Source: Bdellovibrionia bacterium (GTDB taxonomy: Bacteria; Bdellovibrionota; Bdellovibrionia; Bdellovibrionales; UBA1609). Taken from it: a stretch of 50,488 nucleotides of DNA. Below the pieces are notes generated by a model that was not told the origin of the DNA, did no database searches, and saw nothing but the letters and a program-made list of their open reading frames with translations. Positions 2,605 to 18,362 of this stretch are shown here, piece by piece. The stretch is from contig JAUILT010000009.1 of NCBI GenBank assembly GCA_030432925.1, forward strand, positions 1 through 50,488, given 5' to 3'. Numbering within the stretch: the first letter of the stretch is position 1; every line of letters begins with the position of its first letter. The translations under genes and the position numbers were made by a program.

Positions 2605-3362
2605 AAGCCGTTACATAAATTTTTACTGAGATTGTAAAAGTCCGCCTCTGAATAGCCATCACCTTTGATATGCCACCAAGGGTGAAGCTGTCTCAAGGAG
2701 GAGGCTAGGTGGCCTGTGGCATATACGTTAGGGTCGGCATCAAAAGCTGGAAGCAGAATATTCACGTAATCAGTGGCTGTTCCGCCAGGGGTATTGTAAA
2801 TCGCAATGGTGATGGCATCCCAGGTTAGGTCGATTCCATCTAAAACCATGATGACTGAACTAAAAAATTGGCTAGGAGTGATACTCATATTATTCTCTTG
2901 GATTAAGCTTTGGATAGTGCCTTTGGAGAGTTCATTGACGGGCTCAGCTTGTAGTTGAGCGCCAGAGCCTTTTAAAATAAAGTAAATATCCGCAGCTGTT
3001 TGTCTATAAACTGGATTCCCTGGAGAGTTTTCGTGCCATGGAAATATTTGAAGATAAATATTATCCTTACTGATTAATTCTGTAGGGTAATTGTTAAACT
3101 TGATTCGAATCAGGTCTTCAACATAGGTGCCGGTAGCCTGATTATAATAAGTCGAAACAGGCCCTTCAAGGTCAAGATTGTTGGCGGGAATGATATTGCA
3201 GTTGGAGAGGTAGCCTCCAGAAGAGGTGTCTTCAGGGCTATCTACTGGAACTGAGCGGCTGGCCTGATCGCTATGGCCTCCAGATTTACTGGATCCACAA
3301 TTGTTGAAAAATATTAAACCCGCAATGAGAATTGTAGGTATGAGCACTTGTTGCATCTGCAT
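2601..3362 (-). CDS. Lipoprotein of unknown function
   Basis: A 253-residue protein with an N-terminal hydrophobic segment ending in FFNNC, an Asn-rich lipobox of the kind common in Bdellovibrio-like bacteria. GGAG sits a suitable distance upstream of the ATG at 3362. The mature region starts with a Ser/Gly-rich linker and then a soluble domain; I recognise no catalytic motif. It converges on the trypsin-like protease with a 4-base overlap at the stops. A very good sigma-54-like promoter lies upstream at 3413-3428. Confidence 0.75.
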   Translation of the reverse strand: MQMQQVLIPTILIAGLIFFNNCGSSKSGGHSDQASRSVPVDSPEDTSSGGYLSNCNIIPANNLDLEGPVSTYYNQATGTYVEDLIRIKFNNYPTELISKDNIYLQIFPWHENSPGNPVYRQTAADIYFILKGSGAQLQAEPVNELSKGTIQSLIQENNMSITPSQFFSSVIMVLDGIDLTWDAITIAIYNTPGGTATDYVNILLPAFDADPNVYATGHLASSLRQLHPWWHIKGDGYSEADFYNLSKNLCNGF

Positions 3363-6340: not shown

Positions 6341-8671
6341 TCATGAATCTTTAATTTCAGCCCAAGTAATTCCGTCTCCTCCAGTGGCCTCAGCCCCTGA
6401 ATTCCATTTTTTGACGTAGAGGCTTCGAGATAAATAGCTACGAACGGCTCTTTTCAATGTGTCAGTGCCATGTCCGTGGATAATTTTTATGCGATCCACT
6501 TGATGAAGAGCTGCTTTATCAAGGTGAATTTCCAGTTTTTCTAAGGCTTGTTCGACTCTCATACCACGAATATCTAACTGATCGTTACCCCCGTGTCCCA
6601 GTTTTTTAAGAATCTTTTGCGTGGGGTTATTGGGGACCATGGGAGAAGTTAGCTCTGACCAATGTATTAATAATCGCATGGACTGAGATAGAATAGGGAC
6701 TTCTCCTTTGCTATTGGGAGGCCCCTGAACAATTCCATCTTTTCCAATGGAGGATGAAAACACTTTGGACCCTGGAGGGTAAGCTTCTGCAAACTCTTCA
6801 GCTGATTCAAAGCGGCAGGCTTCCCGTGAAGCAGTGGGTTTAATAATTTGGGGGAGTTGTTTTTTTAAAGTGTTGGTGGTGGAGTGCTTTTTAAAAATAG
6901 TGTCTACTTTGCTAAAGTCTGCTATACGATCGATTCTCTTTTCTGCACGCTTCACGACTGTGTTGAGCATTTTATCTTTGTCTTTTTCAAAACGTTGAAC
7001 CAAAGAGTGGTATTTGGACTTTTCTTTGGCAGCTTCTTTACTTTTTTCTTGCAACTCTCTTTGAAGTGTTCTGAGCTCTTTTTTTTGAGTTTCCAGTTCA
7101 TCCAGAGAGTGAAGGTATTTTTTCATTTCTGGTGATAGTAATTGAACGGCATTTTCTACAATAGAGTTATCTACTCCTACGCGCCTGGCTGTTTGAATAG
7201 CTAGGGATTGTCCGGGAACACCTGTCAAAAACTGATAGGTGGGCTGGCCGGATTCGGAGTTATACTCGAGGCTGCCATTAATCACTGCCGAAGATTCATT
7301 CCATCCGGACTTTAAGGGGCCCAGATGAGAGGTGATCACTCCAAAGACTTTATTAGTGCTGAATTTTTGTATAAAACTGCGAGCAAGGGCTGTGCCTTCT
7401 TCCGGATCTGTAGAGCCGCAGATTTCATCAATCAATAGAAGATGAGTGCTTCCTTTCGCTTTGGCGGCTTGATCCAGAATTTTTAAGTGGGCTGCAAAAG
7501 TGCTGAGGTGGGAGTCAACACTTTGGGCGTCTCCCACTCCGACGTGGAGAGTTTTAAAAAATGGAATTTTGGAAGTCTCATCAGCACAGACGAGTAATCC
7601 ACAACGGGCCATTTGAGCTGCCAACCCAATGGCTTTTAGAAGAATTGTTTTTCCTCCGGCATTGGGACCGGAAAGAATTAAGATTCTGTGTTGAGTATCC
7701 AGAGTGACAGAGTTAGGCATGACTTTGACTTCTTCGTCCAATACCAGTGCAGGGTGTTTTACATCAATAAGCTCAATAGTATCATCGGAAAAATGGATAC
7801 GATTGGAGCGTGTCAAAGTGGCGTACTGAGCTTTGGCATAGGCAATATCCAGCTCTAGGAGAATGTGCTGGGCGGCCTCTATGGAGGGTAAGAGGCTGTG
7901 AAGGTACTGGCTGAGAGAAGTTAAAAGCTTTTCTACTTCTTGTTCTATTTCGGATTCAACTTCTCGCAACCTATTATTAGTTTTAATAACTTCTTTGGGC
8001 TCCATAAAAACAGTCTGCTTGGATTGACTGGAAGCATGAATAATCCCTTCAAATTGCCCCTGCATTCCAGACTTTACGGGTAAAACCCATCGTCCTTCTC
8101 GGGTTGTGACGTATTTGTCTTGAAGGATATGTTCGAGCTCATGTTCTGAGATCAGTTTATCAAGAATTTTTGAAACCTCCCTGGCTTTTAGGGTTTTTTC
8201 TTGGTGTAAATTATAAAGGGTTTCGCTGGCATCTGTGCGGATTCCACCATCAGAAGTCATCAGCTGGTCAATAGCTGATAGACCTTCTGAAGCTTCAAAA
8301 AAAATTTCATGTAAATTTTTGAGATAAGGGGCTTCTGTCATAGACAGCACCTCTTTTAAGGCTTGGGACTCAAAAAGAAAGTGGCGAACATCTTTAAGCT
8401 CAAGAGGTTTAAGAGTCGCTCCTTTACTGAGGCGAGGGTGCCAAAGTCCGTAGAGGTCTAAACTTTCCATGAATGGTCGAATACCTGAAGTAGTCATTAG
8501 GTTTTTTACTTCAGAAATCTTAGAAAAAGCCTGTTCACAATCGCTGACAGAACTCAATGGCTTCAGGCTTTTAAGCTTTTCGCGGGCCATTTCGCTGGTG
8601 GCCATACTTACAATTTTTTGAACAATAATGGACCAATCAAGAGAAGTGAGATCTTTGTATTCCAAAAACAA
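6341..8671 (-). CDS. mutS2: MutS2 family ATPase with Smr domain
   Basis: MutS2 of the usual length (776 residues). Homologues bind branched DNA or stalled, collided ribosomes and are linked to recombination control and ribosome rescue. Seen here: the N-terminal core and lever region (1-310), Walker A GPNAGGKT (335-342), the MutS ATPase Walker B region (LLIDEICGSTDPEEG), a long coiled coil after about residue 515, and a C-terminal Smr domain (LDIRGMRVEQA and HGHGTDTLK). The first 35 bases overlap the 3' end of lnt, so the two genes are translationally linked in the order lnt-mutS2. Confidence 0.95.
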   Translation of the reverse strand: MFLEYKDLTSLDWSIIVQKIVSMATSEMAREKLKSLKPLSSVSDCEQAFSKISEVKNLMTTSGIRPFMESLDLYGLWHPRLSKGATLKPLELKDVRHFLFESQALKEVLSMTEAPYLKNLHEIFFEASEGLSAIDQLMTSDGGIRTDASETLYNLHQEKTLKAREVSKILDKLISEHELEHILQDKYVTTREGRWVLPVKSGMQGQFEGIIHASSQSKQTVFMEPKEVIKTNNRLREVESEIEQEVEKLLTSLSQYLHSLLPSIEAAQHILLELDIAYAKAQYATLTRSNRIHFSDDTIELIDVKHPALVLDEEVKVMPNSVTLDTQHRILILSGPNAGGKTILLKAIGLAAQMARCGLLVCADETSKIPFFKTLHVGVGDAQSVDSHLSTFAAHLKILDQAAKAKGSTHLLLIDEICGSTDPEEGTALARSFIQKFSTNKVFGVITSHLGPLKSGWNESSAVINGSLEYNSESGQPTYQFLTGVPGQSLAIQTARRVGVDNSIVENAVQLLSPEMKKYLHSLDELETQKKELRTLQRELQEKSKEAAKEKSKYHSLVQRFEKDKDKMLNTVVKRAEKRIDRIADFSKVDTIFKKHSTTNTLKKQLPQIIKPTASREACRFESAEEFAEAYPPGSKVFSSSIGKDGIVQGPPNSKGEVPILSQSMRLLIHWSELTSPMVPNNPTQKILKKLGHGGNDQLDIRGMRVEQALEKLEIHLDKAALHQVDRIKIIHGHGTDTLKRAVRSYLSRSLYVKKWNSGAEATGGDGITWAEIKDS

Positions 8672-10205
8672 GTACTCCCAGCATGAGTAAAAATATGTAA
8701 GGAAACCAATAACCCCATTGGGAAAACAAAGTCAAAGGGGCTGTTGTGTGGTAGGGAACATTGTAAAGAAACTTCCATTTTTTATGCACGGGGGATTGGG
8801 TTAGAATTGTACCATCGGCCAAAACCACCGTACTGATGCCAGTGTTTGTGGAGCGAATCAGAGGCCTGCGAACCTCGATGGCTCTTGACAGCGTCATATA
8901 AAGGTGTTGATAGGGTTCCTGCCAAGTCCCATACCAAGAATCATTAGTGACATTAACAAGAATTTGAGCATCCAACTGTGCAGACTTTCTGGCAAACCAG
9001 TCAAATAACCCTTCATAGCAAATCTGTGGACCATAACGAACCCCATTAAGGGTTTGAATGACGGGCCCTTTTCCTCTGGAAAAGTGTGCGACCATGGGCA
9101 GCCAGTTATAGAGTTGAGGAATCCAGCTTCCACCAGGGATATATTCACCAAAAGCCAACAGTGTAGTTTTAGTGTAGGTAGGTTGTTGAACAATCCCATT
9201 GTTGTCAAACAAGAACAAAGAGTTAGAGACTCCTCCCGCATCTTGGGCATAACCATAGCTTCCAGTGAATAGGGCATATTTGTTTTTTTTAAGGTAACGT
9301 TGAAGGTGAGAACCCAAGCCACTTTGAAATCCTGCTGGGTTCAAGCGCACAGGAAAGGCAGTTTCTGGCCAAATAGCAAAATCGGGCCTTTGGCCTTCAG
9401 GAGCCTCCTCAAACCCTCGGTGGGTTAATTCGAAAAACTGTTGGACAATATGCTCACGAAACCCTTGGCCCTGTTCTGCGTACTGCTTTTCAAGGTTTCC
9501 AATATTGGCCTGAACAATGAGTACATTAATATCGGCATCAGTTTTTGCAATTCGACTTTTCAAAAAAGCCCCTAAAGCATTGATAATTATAAACAAAATA
9601 GCCATTGTTCCAAGGCCTAAAACCAATCTTGTTGTTTTGGAGCGATACATCCATGAGAACAAGACCAGAGAGTTTAAAAAGATAGAAAAAGTACTTAAAA
9701 ATTTGGTGCCCCAAAGCTCTGCTGTTTGGATGCCTGGAAGCTGTGCCCAAAACCAGGTGTAACCAAAGTGCCAGTCAAAAATCATTGGATATGTCAGCTC
9801 AGTGAATCCCGTTAAAAGTGGCAAAAGGAAAATGGCTGCCAGATCTTTAAGTTTCAGTTTTTTCTTTAAAAAAAACCAAAAAACTCCTGCGAGGGGGATA
9901 TGTAAATTGGCAAATCCACAAAATAGGAGCAAGCCCATTAAGGCTGCTGGCCAAGGGAGGTGTCCGAATTCTTGCAGTGTGTGGGCCACCCAGTTGAAGC
10001 CAATTAAAGTGAGTAAGAATTGAGTGATAAACCCCGAGACTAAAATGGCTTTGAGATTATGGGAGTTCTTTATCCAAAATAGCCATAAAGGAACAAAGCA
10101 AAACACCAAGGCCCAAGGAGGAAAAGGGATGAATGTCGTTCCAATCATGATTCCAGATGCAACGGCATACTTGTGGAAAACAACAAGGTTTTTCAGTTTT
10201 TCCAT
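8637..10205 (-). CDS. lnt: Apolipoprotein N-acyltransferase
   Basis: Lnt transfers the third acyl chain from phospholipid onto the N-terminal Cys of lipoproteins in the inner membrane, which suits a genome so rich in lipoproteins. At 522 residues it has normal length. An N-terminal multi-helix membrane region (about 10-215) is followed by a nitrilase-like periplasmic domain. The triad is visible as Glu281 (IWPETAFP), Lys346 (TYTKTTLLAFGEY) and Cys396 (QICYEGLF). A last helix (YWFPYIFLLMLGVLVFG) closes the protein. It is first in the lnt-mutS2 pair. Confidence 0.95.
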   Translation of the reverse strand: MEKLKNLVVFHKYAVASGIMIGTTFIPFPPWALVFCFVPLWLFWIKNSHNLKAILVSGFITQFLLTLIGFNWVAHTLQEFGHLPWPAALMGLLLFCGFANLHIPLAGVFWFFLKKKLKLKDLAAIFLLPLLTGFTELTYPMIFDWHFGYTWFWAQLPGIQTAELWGTKFLSTFSIFLNSLVLFSWMYRSKTTRLVLGLGTMAILFIIINALGAFLKSRIAKTDADINVLIVQANIGNLEKQYAEQGQGFREHIVQQFFELTHRGFEEAPEGQRPDFAIWPETAFPVRLNPAGFQSGLGSHLQRYLKKNKYALFTGSYGYAQDAGGVSNSLFLFDNNGIVQQPTYTKTTLLAFGEYIPGGSWIPQLYNWLPMVAHFSRGKGPVIQTLNGVRYGPQICYEGLFDWFARKSAQLDAQILVNVTNDSWYGTWQEPYQHLYMTLSRAIEVRRPLIRSTNTGISTVVLADGTILTQSPVHKKWKFLYNVPYHTTAPLTLFSQWGYWFPYIFLLMLGVLVFGIQRSHFS

Positions 10206-12797: not shown

Positions 12798-14990
12798 TTA
12801 AATAGATTGAGGAGGTTCCATTTTTAAAACGCTGGCAGGAAAAGAGATCTTTTCGCCATCGGCATTTAATAAAGAGTAAAAGATCAGATTACGCATTACG
12901 AGGCGAACATAGCCTCGTGTCTCTTCGTAGGGAATATCTTCAATAAATTCCAGCGTATCCCCATGATAACGGGTCTTAAGCCAACCTCGAATAGCCCGGT
13001 CGTTGGCATTGTAAGAGGCCACGGTTAAGACGAATTGATTATTCCATTTTGTTTGAAGTTTTTTGATAAATGCTGCTCCTACAGGAATATTAACTTCTGG
13101 TTTGTAGAGGTCCTCGGGTTTTTCGTAAGTGACTTTAGCGACAGAGGCTTGTTTGCGGGCGACTTCAGGTAGCATTTGTAAAAGTCCAAATGCATCAGCA
13201 ACTGAGCGGGCTCAAGGGTTAAAAGCAGATTCTTGCCTCATAATACTGTAAAGGAGCTCTGTACTGACTCCAAACTGCTTGGAGGCGTCCATGACTAGGT
13301 TCTCAAATGGTTGTGGAAATATCAGGCTGGGGTGACGGTCTAAAATCTCTTTACGCCTTTCTGGGGAGAGGCGTCCCAACTGCTCATATAAAGATAGGTA
13401 TTCTCCAGCTCGAGCATAGTAATTAAAGACCTGAAACCAGGCTTCATCGGTCTGGTCTTTACGTTTTCTAAAAGCTATAGAGACTTCGTTGAGATACCTT
13501 TTGGAGAGATCGTGTTCTTCAAGGCTGATCAACCACTCAATTAATTGGGTGTCTATAATTTTATCCAGAGAGAACGTCTGTTTTTTATCTTTTGCAGGAA
13601 GCCTTTCTAAAATTTCTTTATTAGCAGGAATCAACTGTTCGGTTTCATGATGAGCGACCAATCCATAGTAACCCAGAGGATCTTCGTTGATCAGGGTTTG
13701 AAACTCGAGGCGCGAACGAGTTTCTTCGCTCTTACTGGCCCAAGTCTTAGCTAACCAGAAACGGTATCGAGATCTGGCAAAATCATTCTCAGTGAGTTGA
13801 ATGAGTTCTTCGAAGGAGGCAATGGCTTTGTCATACTTTTCCAGTTTTCTTTCAGTCCAGGCTTTATACCACATGAGTTTTTCCTGGAAGTCGACAGAAT
13901 AAAACTTTTCTTTCAATGCTCTTTCAAACCAGTAGTGGGCTTTTTTAAATCGGCCTTTTTCCTCATCCATTCGCCCAAAAAGCCAGAAGACTTCATTCAT
14001 TGTATATTTGTCACGTAGTTGACGTTCAATCCGAGCCAGGGTGCGTCCGGCACTTTTGACCTGTCCACGGGTCCACTCGGTTCTGGCTAAGGCAATGTGA
14101 GTTTCATGGAACTTGCGTTTGAAGTAATGGCTGCGTGGATATTTCTTCATGAATTTTTCAGAAAACCGCGCCATTTCTCTTGTAACTCTCAAGTGTCCTT
14201 CGTGGTCGCGATCATTTTTATAGGCTTTGCGTAGTCCATACCAGGCTTTGAGCTTTGTAGAAAATTTAAAGTGTTTATGACCAATCACTTTGCGATAGTA
14301 CTTTCGTGATTCTTTGAAGTTTCTTAAACGTCGATGATCATAGGCAACACTCAGCCACTGGTGGCGGGTGGGCTTGGGGTGGCTTGAGGGGCGCAGTTTA
14401 TAAAGCCGTTTTTGCATTTTTTTAGCAAACTGCTTTTTTTTAAGTTTTTTGGCAATGTGGAGAGCTCTTTGGGTGAGATTCACTTTTTTGGGAGTTGGTA
14501 GATATTCTTTTGATTTTTCATAGGACAGTTCCATTTCTTGCTTGAGATTCTGATCTCTAGTGGCTCGGGCTAGAGCTATTTCCAGTGCTGCTTTTTGCAT
14601 CCACTTGGGGAATGACTTCCAGTCAAATTTTTTGAGCCCACTCAGAGATTCTGAATTCTTAGGACAGATTTCATAAGATTTTAGATAAGCCACTTGAGCC
14701 ATGGGAAACAAAGGGTCTTTGGCCAGGCTGGTGAGGCGTTCGCAGGAGAGCTCCGGTTTCTTCTCTTGCCAGATCATCGCGCGCTTGTAGGCAATCCACC
14801 ACTGATACTCGCGGGTGGATTGGGCTTCAGCCGCTTTTTGTAGATAAAAGTCCACATTTTCAATATCGCTTTCTTTTTCTAGAGGAATTTGGGGCGGTAA
14901 TAGCCGGGTCTCAGGGGGCATATGCTGTATGGAATTCGAGGCACAGCCCATTCCGAGAATCAGGAGGAAAGAGAAAACAAAAGAATGCAT
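12798..14990 (-). pseudogene. Slt-like lytic transglycosylase interrupted by in-frame TGA
   Basis: A soluble-lytic-transglycosylase homologue that would cut peptidoglycan glycan strands. The N-terminus has a lipoprotein signal (LILGMGC), then a long helical TPR-like superhelix (to about residue 565), then the SLT domain with catalytic Glu in MRQESAFNP. The codon right after NP is TGA (13212-13214), at codon 593. The same frame continues without another stop as ARSVADAFGLLQMLP ... VASYNANDRAIRGW ... YVRLV, to 12798, matching the rest of a normal SLT domain. Homologues usually have Arg or a similar residue here, so CGA to TGA is the likely change. A true nonsense mutation, a sequencing error or readthrough are all possible. 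Confidence 0.8.
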
Positions 14991-15116: not shown

Positions 15117-16943
15117 TCACTGATTTGCGAGCCTCGCTTGTAAGCTCTCCAGTTTCTCTTGAGTTTCCATCCAGTCCTCCTCGAGCTCATTCATTTGCTT
15201 TTGCCGATAAGCGAGATCCATCATCAGTTTTTGTGCCTCATCTCCCTTGAGTGTTGATACCTTGGCTGAGTCAGATTCAAACTCTTCATTCAAGCGTAAA
15301 AGCTTTCCATCTAGGTACTTTATGCGTTTTTCGATTTCGCGAATTTCTATACGGAGCTTTTTCTTTTTTTCTTTATTTTTGTGATGAGATTCTGTCTTCT
15401 TGTTTTCAGAAATTTTCTTTTGATGAGAGCCTTTGTCCACCTTAGGGCTTGTGTCTGACAGCATTCCTTTTTGCAGGCTCCATACATACTCCTGATAGGT
15501 GCCGGGATAAAACCGAGCCTGCCCACTGTTAATTTGAAGAATTTGTTGGGCCACTCGACCAATAAAACTTCGATCATGGCTGACGACAATCACTGAGCCA
15601 GGATAATTTTTCAAAGCTTCTGTCAGCGCTTCTACTGTATGAAAATCCAAATGGTTGGTGGGCTCATCCAGTACTAGCAAGGGTGTCCTCTGTACAAGAA
15701 TACGTCCCAAGGCCACTCGAGCCTTTTCTCCGCCAGACATTTTTTTTAGTGAAGCATCGATGCGATCATCAGAAAATAGCAGTTGTCCCGCAAGGTCTCG
15801 TAAGTCTTGACGAGTAAGGTCTTTATGGGCTACTTCAGCCAGTGCCTCGTACACAGTTTGGTTTAGGTTAAGATTTTCGGCAACATGTTGAGAGTAATAG
15901 CCAATTGTAACATTGGGGCCATGGTTGATATTACCGATTTGTGGTTTTAATTGCTGGGCTACAGCTTTTAAAAATGTAGACTTACCGGCACCATTTTCAC
16001 CCACGACCCCTAGGTGGGCTCCACGTAGAAGCTGAAAATTCACATCACGTAAGACCACTTTTTCTTTGTATCCCAGCTGAACATTTTCAAAGTGCACAAC
16101 TCTTTTACCGGTACGTATTGGCTCAGGGATACGAATGCGAGCTTGAATGGGTAGTGGTTTGGTTTCAATAGATTCCAACTTTTTCAGAGTTTTCAGTTTG
16201 CTTTGGGCTTGACGGGCTTTGGTAGCCTTAGCTCCAAAGCGCCTTGCAAAGTCCAGAATCTCTTTGCGGCGGTTTTCAATAGAAATAGCCTTTGCTCGAA
16301 GCTGTTCTTCAATCATAGATTTTTGTTCAAAGTAGTCATCAATATGACCATTGAATTTTGTGAACTCACCATTTTCAATTTCAAGTGTGCGATTGGTGAC
16401 TCGTTTTAAAAATTCTCGGTCGTGAGAGATCAGTAGGAAAGCTCCTGGGTATTGTATTAAAAACTCTTCCAGAACCAAAAGAGACTCCAGGTCCAGGTAG
16501 TTAGTGGGCTCATCTAAGAGCAGCAAGTTGGGATCCTTGGCCAGCTGGCTCAAAAGCTGGCAGCGCATCCGAAAGCCTCCACTGAGTTGAGTGATGGGGA
16601 AAAGCAGTTGCTCTTCTTTGAGACCCAGTCCAAAGGCTAATGGGTACAGCTCCCACATGGGGCGGCCAGAAGTTCTTTCTATATAGTCCTGAGAGAGTTC
16701 TCCAGCTTCCAATGGCTCCTCTTGTTGTAGGTAACCTAGACGCAGAGAGTTGGAGCGTGTGATGGTGCCGCCATCCAGTGATTCTTGGTCAGCTAAAATT
16801 TTAAAAAGAGTGGTTTTTCCGGCTCCATTAGGGCCGATAACACCAATATGTTCACCAGTTTCTATAGCCATGGATGCTTTAGAAAAGAGGTTTCGGGCCC
16901 CGAAGGCCTTTTCACCGGACTGTACCTGAAGAAGAATTCCCAT
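15117..16943 (-). CDS. ABC-F family ATPase (Uup/EttA-like)
   Basis: A cytosolic ABC-F protein with two nucleotide-binding domains in one chain and no membrane segment. Domain 1 has GPNGAGKTT, LSGGFRMR and LLLDEPTNYLD; domain 2 has GENGAGKST, MSGGEKARVALG and LVLDEPTNHLD. Between them lies a charged linker (P-site tRNA interaction motif region), and the C-terminus is a Lys/Glu-rich coiled coil, as in Uup. Members act on ribosomes or on branched DNA. The ATG at 16943 is preferred (AAGG 5 bases upstream); TTG 16973 and ATG 16955 are alternatives. Confidence 0.92.
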   Translation of the reverse strand: MGILLQVQSGEKAFGARNLFSKASMAIETGEHIGVIGPNGAGKTTLFKILADQESLDGGTITRSNSLRLGYLQQEEPLEAGELSQDYIERTSGRPMWELYPLAFGLGLKEEQLLFPITQLSGGFRMRCQLLSQLAKDPNLLLLDEPTNYLDLESLLVLEEFLIQYPGAFLLISHDREFLKRVTNRTLEIENGEFTKFNGHIDDYFEQKSMIEEQLRAKAISIENRRKEILDFARRFGAKATKARQAQSKLKTLKKLESIETKPLPIQARIRIPEPIRTGKRVVHFENVQLGYKEKVVLRDVNFQLLRGAHLGVVGENGAGKSTFLKAVAQQLKPQIGNINHGPNVTIGYYSQHVAENLNLNQTVYEALAEVAHKDLTRQDLRDLAGQLLFSDDRIDASLKKMSGGEKARVALGRILVQRTPLLVLDEPTNHLDFHTVEALTEALKNYPGSVIVVSHDRSFIGRVAQQILQINSGQARFYPGTYQEYVWSLQKGMLSDTSPKVDKGSHQKKISENKKTESHHKNKEKKKKLRIEIREIEKRIKYLDGKLLRLNEEFESDSAKVSTLKGDEAQKLMMDLAYRQKQMNELEEDWMETQEKLESLQARLANQ

Positions 16944-17147: not shown

Positions 17148-18362
17148 ATGAAGAGAAGCGTTTTGTTAGTTATTATTACAGCACTGACAGCCACGTTGGT
17201 GTTTGGCTGTGCCCAGAAAGACACGCCGGAGGAAAAGCAAAAGAATCTATCCAACTGGAAGGTAAAAATGGCTCAGATGTCGCAGAGTCTTGCTCATCTC
17301 ATACCTTTGGTGAGTACCCCGGAGAGATTTAATGATCCTGATAACAAAGCTAAAATTCAAAAGGAAATTTTACGTTTTTCAAAACTTTCCCACTCTATCA
17401 CGGTCAACAAAAAGCCTGAGGCTGATCCTAGCTTGGACTTTGTGTCACGAAAGTTTGAAGCAGATATGAAAGAAGCCTATGCTCAAATGGAAAAGGGCAA
17501 CAACAATTACGCTCGATATTTGGTTTCTAATACCACAAATTATTGTATCAGCTGTCATACCAGAACAGACAGTGGCCGTGCTAACCTTAACTTTTCGGCG
17601 TCTGTAGACATGTCCCAGTTCAAGCCTCTAGAAAAAGCTCAGGTATATATGGCCGTTCGAGACTTTGATAAAGCTCTTCAGGCTTTTGATCAAGCAGCCA
17701 ATGCCAGAGGTGCCACTTCGAAACCTCAAATGTTGGAGTTAGCAGCAGAAAAATCACTGGCCATAGCTGTGAGAGTTAAAAAAGATCCCAGCTTAGCTGA
17801 TGAGATGGTCTCTCGTATTTTGGACTCCAAGACAGCTCCTGTATTTTTAAAACTGAAAGCTCGTAACTGGAAAAGTTCGATTCAGCGCTGGAAGAAGGAA
17901 GAAAAAAGAAAGCCCAAAACATTGGGGCCCAAGCGCAAGTTAAAGACCGCGAATAACTTGATGACTCGAGGATGGCGTTTGGAGTCTGAATCTATGAATT
18001 CAAGAGCCGGCTTAGTGGAGTTTCTCAGAGCATCGTCTCTTTTACATGAAATTCTATCAGACAAGAAGAACTACAGTGTTTACGGTGAGGCCCTATATAC
18101 TGCTGGATTGGCTGCAGAATCTCTCCGGCAGATCAACTTATGGACATTGCATGAAGCCTATTATGAATCCTGCATTCGATTTTCTCCTTATACAAATTTG
18201 GCCAAACGATGTTACCTAAGGCTGGAGGCTCTGCAGTTGAGTGCCTATTCCGCTTATGATGGCGCTTCTGTTCCAGCTCACATTCGAGAACATCTTCTAG
18301 AGCTGCGGGCGCTGGCAGAGAAAAGCACTGGTGACTTTATGGACTGGGGGTTTATTGATTGA
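17148..18362 (+). CDS. Heme-c-binding lipoprotein, TPR-like
   Basis: A 404-residue exported lipoprotein (lipobox LVFGC, Cys21) with one covalent heme-c site, CISCH at residues 133-137. The region before it is helical and resembles a cytochrome c'-like or monoheme domain; after it come helical repeats of the tetratricopeptide type (for example KAQVYMAVRDFDKALQAFDQAA). It probably sits in the periplasm as an electron-transfer or redox-sensing protein. It opens a tightly packed operon: its TGA overlaps the next ATG by one base. Confidence 0.82.
   Translation: MKRSVLLVIITALTATLVFGCAQKDTPEEKQKNLSNWKVKMAQMSQSLAHLIPLVSTPERFNDPDNKAKIQKEILRFSKLSHSITVNKKPEADPSLDFVSRKFEADMKEAYAQMEKGNNNYARYLVSNTTNYCISCHTRTDSGRANLNFSASVDMSQFKPLEKAQVYMAVRDFDKALQAFDQAANARGATSKPQMLELAAEKSLAIAVRVKKDPSLADEMVSRILDSKTAPVFLKLKARNWKSSIQRWKKEEKRKPKTLGPKRKLKTANNLMTRGWRLESESMNSRAGLVEFLRASSLLHEILSDKKNYSVYGEALYTAGLAAESLRQINLWTLHEAYYESCIRFSPYTNLAKRCYLRLEALQLSAYSAYDGASVPAHIREHLLELRALAEKSTGDFMDWGFID

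What the first reader, a model, noticed from the sequence alone, without database searches (positions are those of the whole stretch)
13212..13214. In-frame TGA inside the catalytic domain of a lytic transglycosylase
The SLT reading frame runs through the catalytic Glu (MRQESAFNP), meets TGA, and continues with the rest of a well-conserved SLT domain for 138 codons with no further stop. The expected residue at this site is usually Arg, so one C-to-T change explains it. The downstream half looks unspoiled, so the event is recent, an error, or the codon is read through. TGA ends other genes here (e.g. 18360-18362), so it is not a general sense codon.
Basis: partly seen in the sequence, partly recalled or inferred. 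Interest (0 to 1): 0.6.

Follow-up and report, generated by a model that had tools for sequence, protein, structure and literature searches.

The report
Cell-wall enzyme gene with premature stop
A gene for a cell-wall-cutting enzyme in a draft genome of an uncultured Bdellovibrionales-type bacterium carries one stop codon in the middle of its catalytic domain; everything tested points to an ordinary recent one-base break (or a base error in the assembly), not to a new way of reading the genetic code.

Summary
On the minus strand, TGA at 13214..13212 is codon 593 of a 730-codon Slt70-type lytic transglycosylase frame (14990->12798). The stop falls six residues after the catalytic Glu, and 137 further codons carry the rest of the SLT domain. 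None of about 120 homologues read at that site has a stop there. The site is variable (Lys, Arg, Tyr, Glu, Leu and others), so Arg is only one of many residues found. The downstream part is undecayed: 34 of 34 conserved columns are kept and it evolves no faster than in the sister species.

Recoding is not supported. RF2 is present, with its own CTT-TGA-C programmed frameshift. There is no tRNA-Sec or SelB, no UCA-anticodon tRNA was found, and tRNA-Trp lacks the three known UGA-suppressing features checked. TGA ends 36% of long ORFs. No stimulatory structure follows the stop. In 1.35 Mb (44%) of the genome only one other gene is clearly interrupted this way (also TGA), far too few for a reassigned codon.

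Best reading: a recent, isolated nonsense change leaving an inactive truncated product in a genome with at least six other SLT-domain genes. The main rival is a consensus error in a 172-contig draft assembly. Reads would decide.

The parts
12798..14990 (-). Interrupted Slt70-type soluble lytic transglycosylase gene: lipoprotein-like N-terminus, TPR/helical region, C-terminal SLT domain; 730 codons with one internal TGA
13215..14990 (-). Codons 1-592, the part made by normal translation; ends six residues after the catalytic Glu and by itself has no Pfam SLT match
13212..13214 (-). In-frame TGA, codon 593
12798..13211 (-). Codons 594-730 plus terminal stop: rest of the SLT domain (Pfam positions 31-115), intact
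12798..13175 (-). Only sizeable ORF with a start downstream of the TGA (125 aa, ATG 36 bases after the stop); lacks the catalytic Glu and the ARSxADAFGLLQ motif, so not a free-standing enzyme

Best explanation
A single-base nonsense change arose recently in an otherwise intact, selected lytic transglycosylase gene. RF2 ends translation at the UGA, so the cell makes a 592-residue protein that stops just after the catalytic Glu. This product lacks most of the substrate cleft and should be enzymatically dead. The loss is tolerable, or has not yet been purged, because the genome has several other SLT-domain genes. Shown: the TGA, the intact flanks, the absence of the stop in homologues, the absence of recoding machinery, and the other SLT genes. 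Inferred: that the base is real in living cells, that the product is inactive, and that the change is recent.
For: The TGA is private to this genome: no stop at that site in about 40 relatives' homologues or in 80 named loci. The downstream part is unspoiled: 34 of 34 conserved columns kept, own-unique versus sister-unique changes 11:11 and 6:11, and 70% identity to the sister. Local gene order is conserved with the sister contig, and the neighbours with a match there (Peptidase S8, the 522-aa gene at 8637-10205 and others) are unbroken; only this gene is split. TGA is a normal terminator: 224 of 623 long ORFs. RF2 is present (515.5 bits) with the AGG...CTT TGA C frameshift site. The own genome has nine SLT-domain hits in all.
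Against: No reads and no second strain are available, so a consensus error in a 172-contig draft is nearly as likely. The downstream part shows no decay at all, which an error or a polymorphism would explain equally well.
Confidence: 0.52

Rival explanations
1. Consensus error or minority-variant artefact of a draft (metagenome-type) assembly: the living population has a sense codon and the gene is normal.
For: The genome is a 172-contig draft and its near relatives are almost all MAGs. The downstream half shows no relaxation. Interrupted genes are rare: two clear ones in 1.35 Mb, which low-rate substitution errors would give. Other draft genomes show unrelated breaks in the same gene at other positions, one beside a run of N.
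Against: None specific. The surrounding contig shows no other lesion where it could be compared with the sister contig.
Confidence: 0.4
2. UGA is read through at this site (near-cognate tRNA-Trp or RF2 failure), giving some full-length enzyme; the truncated form is a by-product.
For: Two of two clearly interrupted genes in the sample carry TGA rather than TAA or TAG. The site tolerates many residues, so almost any inserted amino acid would work. The downstream half is under undiminished constraint.
Against: tRNA-Trp has a CCA anticodon, a 5-bp anticodon stem, A9 and G24, i.e. none of the three known UGA-suppressing features (features from PMC13092985). No UCA anticodon among 29 tRNAs. RF2 is intact and self-regulated. 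RNA after the stop folds no better than shuffles, z = 0.17, and there is no Rfam match. No relative keeps a stop there. 2/2 TGA is expected by chance about one time in nine if the three stops are equally likely.
Confidence: 0.06
3. Selenocysteine or general UGA reassignment.
For: None beyond the in-frame UGA.
Against: No tRNA-Sec above the gathering score, no SelB above the cut-off, and TGA ends 36% of long ORFs.
Confidence: 0.01
4. A deliberately split or regulated gene: a truncated helical protein plus a re-initiated downstream fragment.
For: An ATG lies 36 bases downstream of the TGA.
Against: The downstream ORF lacks the catalytic Glu and the ARSxADAFGLLQ motif. No relative has the split at this place; one other draft genome (G009) has a frameshift 13 codons earlier, an independent event.
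Confidence: 0.01

Closest known systems
Slt70-type soluble lytic transglycosylases (Pfam PF01464 SLT; structures 1qsa, 6fbt, 5ohu)
   Same: C-terminal SLT domain with the catalytic Glu motif RQESAFNP, ARSxADAFGLxQ and SYNA motifs; long helical N-terminal region
   Different: One in-frame TGA six residues after the catalytic Glu; N-terminal region matches TPR models and aligns only weakly with Slt70
Bacterial pseudogenes with a single internal stop
   Same: Isolated private nonsense codon, full-length intact homologues in relatives, functional paralogues present
   Different: No decay yet in the part after the stop; not confirmed by reads
UGA suppression by tRNA-Trp variants (G24A, A9C, 4-bp anticodon stem; PMC13092985)
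   Same: In-frame UGA with a constrained continuation
   Different: The tRNA-Trp of this genome has none of these three features

Membership tests
Slt70-type lytic transglycosylase (PF01464) | SLT domain above the curated cut-off | tested here: met
   80.4 bits against a cut-off of 21.3 when read through; the fragment after the stop alone has 47.1 bits, the fragment before it no match
Slt70-type lytic transglycosylase (PF01464) | Catalytic Glu and SLT signature residues kept | tested here: met
   E587, G602, Q605, Y660-N661-A662 and others are invariant among 11 homologues
Pseudogene by nonsense mutation | Premature stop absent from intact homologues | tested here: met
Pseudogene by nonsense mutation | Stop present in the DNA of living cells, not an assembly error | not testable with these tools
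   no reads, no second strain; nearest genome with the gene is 55% identical in protein
Pseudogene by nonsense mutation | Relaxed constraint after the stop | tested here: not met
   34/34 conserved columns kept and no rate excess: the change is very recent or not real
Selenoprotein | SelB and tRNA-Sec in the genome | tested here: not met
   only sub-threshold hits
UGA-reassigned code | UGA-decoding tRNA, loss of RF2, many in-frame UGA codons | tested here: not met
   RF2 present; no UCA anticodon; only two clear in-frame UGA genes in 1.35 Mb
Programmed UGA read-through | Stop codon conserved among relatives, with a stimulatory element | tested here: not met
   no relative has a stop there; folding z = 0.17

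The most novel reading that the evidence does not exclude
UGA is leaky in this lineage, so a few genes with an in-frame UGA at tolerant sites still yield some full-length protein. Two of two clear interruptions found carry TGA.
Probability: 0.05. Interest if true: 0.45.

Novelty: already known. Interest (0 to 1): 0.1.

Why it matters
It matters little as biology: an isolated internal stop in one of several related cell-wall enzymes of an uncultured bacterium. It is useful as a caution, because the tempting reading (recoding inside a catalytic domain) fails every test that could be run, and only reads can tell a recent nonsense mutation from a base error.

Tried and rejected
Selenocysteine: no SelB, no tRNA-Sec. 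UGA suppressor tRNA: no UCA anticodon, normal tRNA-Trp. Code reassignment: TGA is common as a terminator, RF2 present. Structured read-through element: z = 0.17, no Rfam match. Conserved stop in relatives: none. Programmed split gene: downstream ORF lacks the catalytic residues. A coding-potential scan for other interrupted genes gave 26 strong candidates; all but this gene have a start codon within a few codons of the stop and read as ordinary neighbouring genes. One apparent second case at L111:17349 proved to be the normal end of metK followed by another gene. The genome-contig search with the single protein gave nothing; with an alignment it gave 80 homologues.

Full report
Observation. 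On the minus strand the frame 14990->12798 runs 592 codons, meets TGA at 13214..13212, and continues 137 codons to the next stop. Read through, the product is a 730-residue Slt70-type lytic transglycosylase: Pfam SLT 80.4 bits against a cut-off of 21.3, with solved relatives 6fbt, 5ohu and 1qsa. The stop lies six residues after the catalytic Glu (MRQESAFNP). The piece after the stop, translated alone, still scores 47.1 bits to SLT positions 31-115; the piece before it has no SLT match at all. So the truncated product lacks nearly all of the catalytic domain.

Relatives. The window is contig C114 of a 3.04 Mb, 172-contig draft genome. The nearest homologues belong to Bdellovibrionales MAGs. A match to the family occurs in 147 of 148 relatives searched; the best full-length homologue (G002, same genus) is 55% identical. 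None of about 40 relatives' homologues read codon by codon, nor of 80 named loci, has a stop at this site; the two sets overlap in part.

Selection after the stop. All 34 columns conserved in at least 90% of the other homologues are kept downstream of the stop; the sister differs in 2 of 35. Relative-rate counts do not show acceleration: 11 own-unique versus 11 sister-unique with one outgroup, 6 versus 11 with another. Either the change is very recent, or it is not real, or the protein is still made. Gene order around it matches the sister contig, and the neighbouring genes that have a match there are unbroken.

Recoding tests. RF2 is present well above its cut-off and has the AGG...CTT TGA C programmed frameshift site seen in E. 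coli prfB (comparison from general knowledge). No SelB or tRNA-Sec passes its threshold. None of 29 tRNA genes has a UCA anticodon; tRNA-Trp is CCA with five paired anticodon-stem positions, A9 and G24, i.e. without the three UGA-suppressing features named in PMC13092985. The RNA around the stop folds no better than shuffled sequence (z = 0.17), and no Rfam family matches.

How common are such stops here? In 1.35 Mb of the same genome (44%), TGA ends 224 of 623 long ORFs. A coding-potential scan gave 26 stops with coding signal on both sides. All but this one have a start codon within six codons of the stop and read as ordinary tandem genes. A looser scan added one clear case, already noticed: a 1223-residue frame on contig C30 with TGA at a position where most relatives have Gly. 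Two clear cases in 44% of the genome fit ordinary nonsense mutations or draft errors. Both being TGA is suggestive but not significant (about 1 in 9 if the three stops are equally likely). The scan is insensitive to short or weakly coding pieces, so the count is a lower bound.

Mechanism. Most likely UGA terminates translation and the truncated protein is inactive; at least six other SLT-domain genes (nine domain hits in all) make the loss tolerable. Whether the base is real in the population cannot be decided without reads. I put 0.52 on a real recent nonsense change, 0.40 on a consensus error, 0.06 on meaningful read-through and the rest on other readings.

Novelty. Ordinary: an internal-stop gene in a draft genome. 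Interest is low.

Noticed in passing
L200 (G000:C30) 3281..3279, minus strand: A second in-frame TGA in the same genome, inside a 1223-residue lipoprotein-like frame with no Pfam match; nine aligned relatives have a sense codon there (eight Gly, one Ala).
   Followed up: yes
L051 (G000:C29), prfB: RF2 gene carries the CTT TGA C programmed +1 frameshift site, so RF2 autoregulation by UGA appears kept in this lineage.
   Followed up: partly
L043 (G009:C151), L040 (G031:C110), L041 (G042:C57): Homologues of the same transglycosylase gene are broken in other draft genomes at different places: a frameshift just before the catalytic Glu, two nearby stops, and a TGA about a dozen residues before a run of N. 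They look like independent losses or draft errors.
   Followed up: partly
L252 (G000:C7), ending at 16929, minus strand: A 233-codon open frame ends in a long run of Asp-Gly repeats (DGDGDG...).
   Followed up: no
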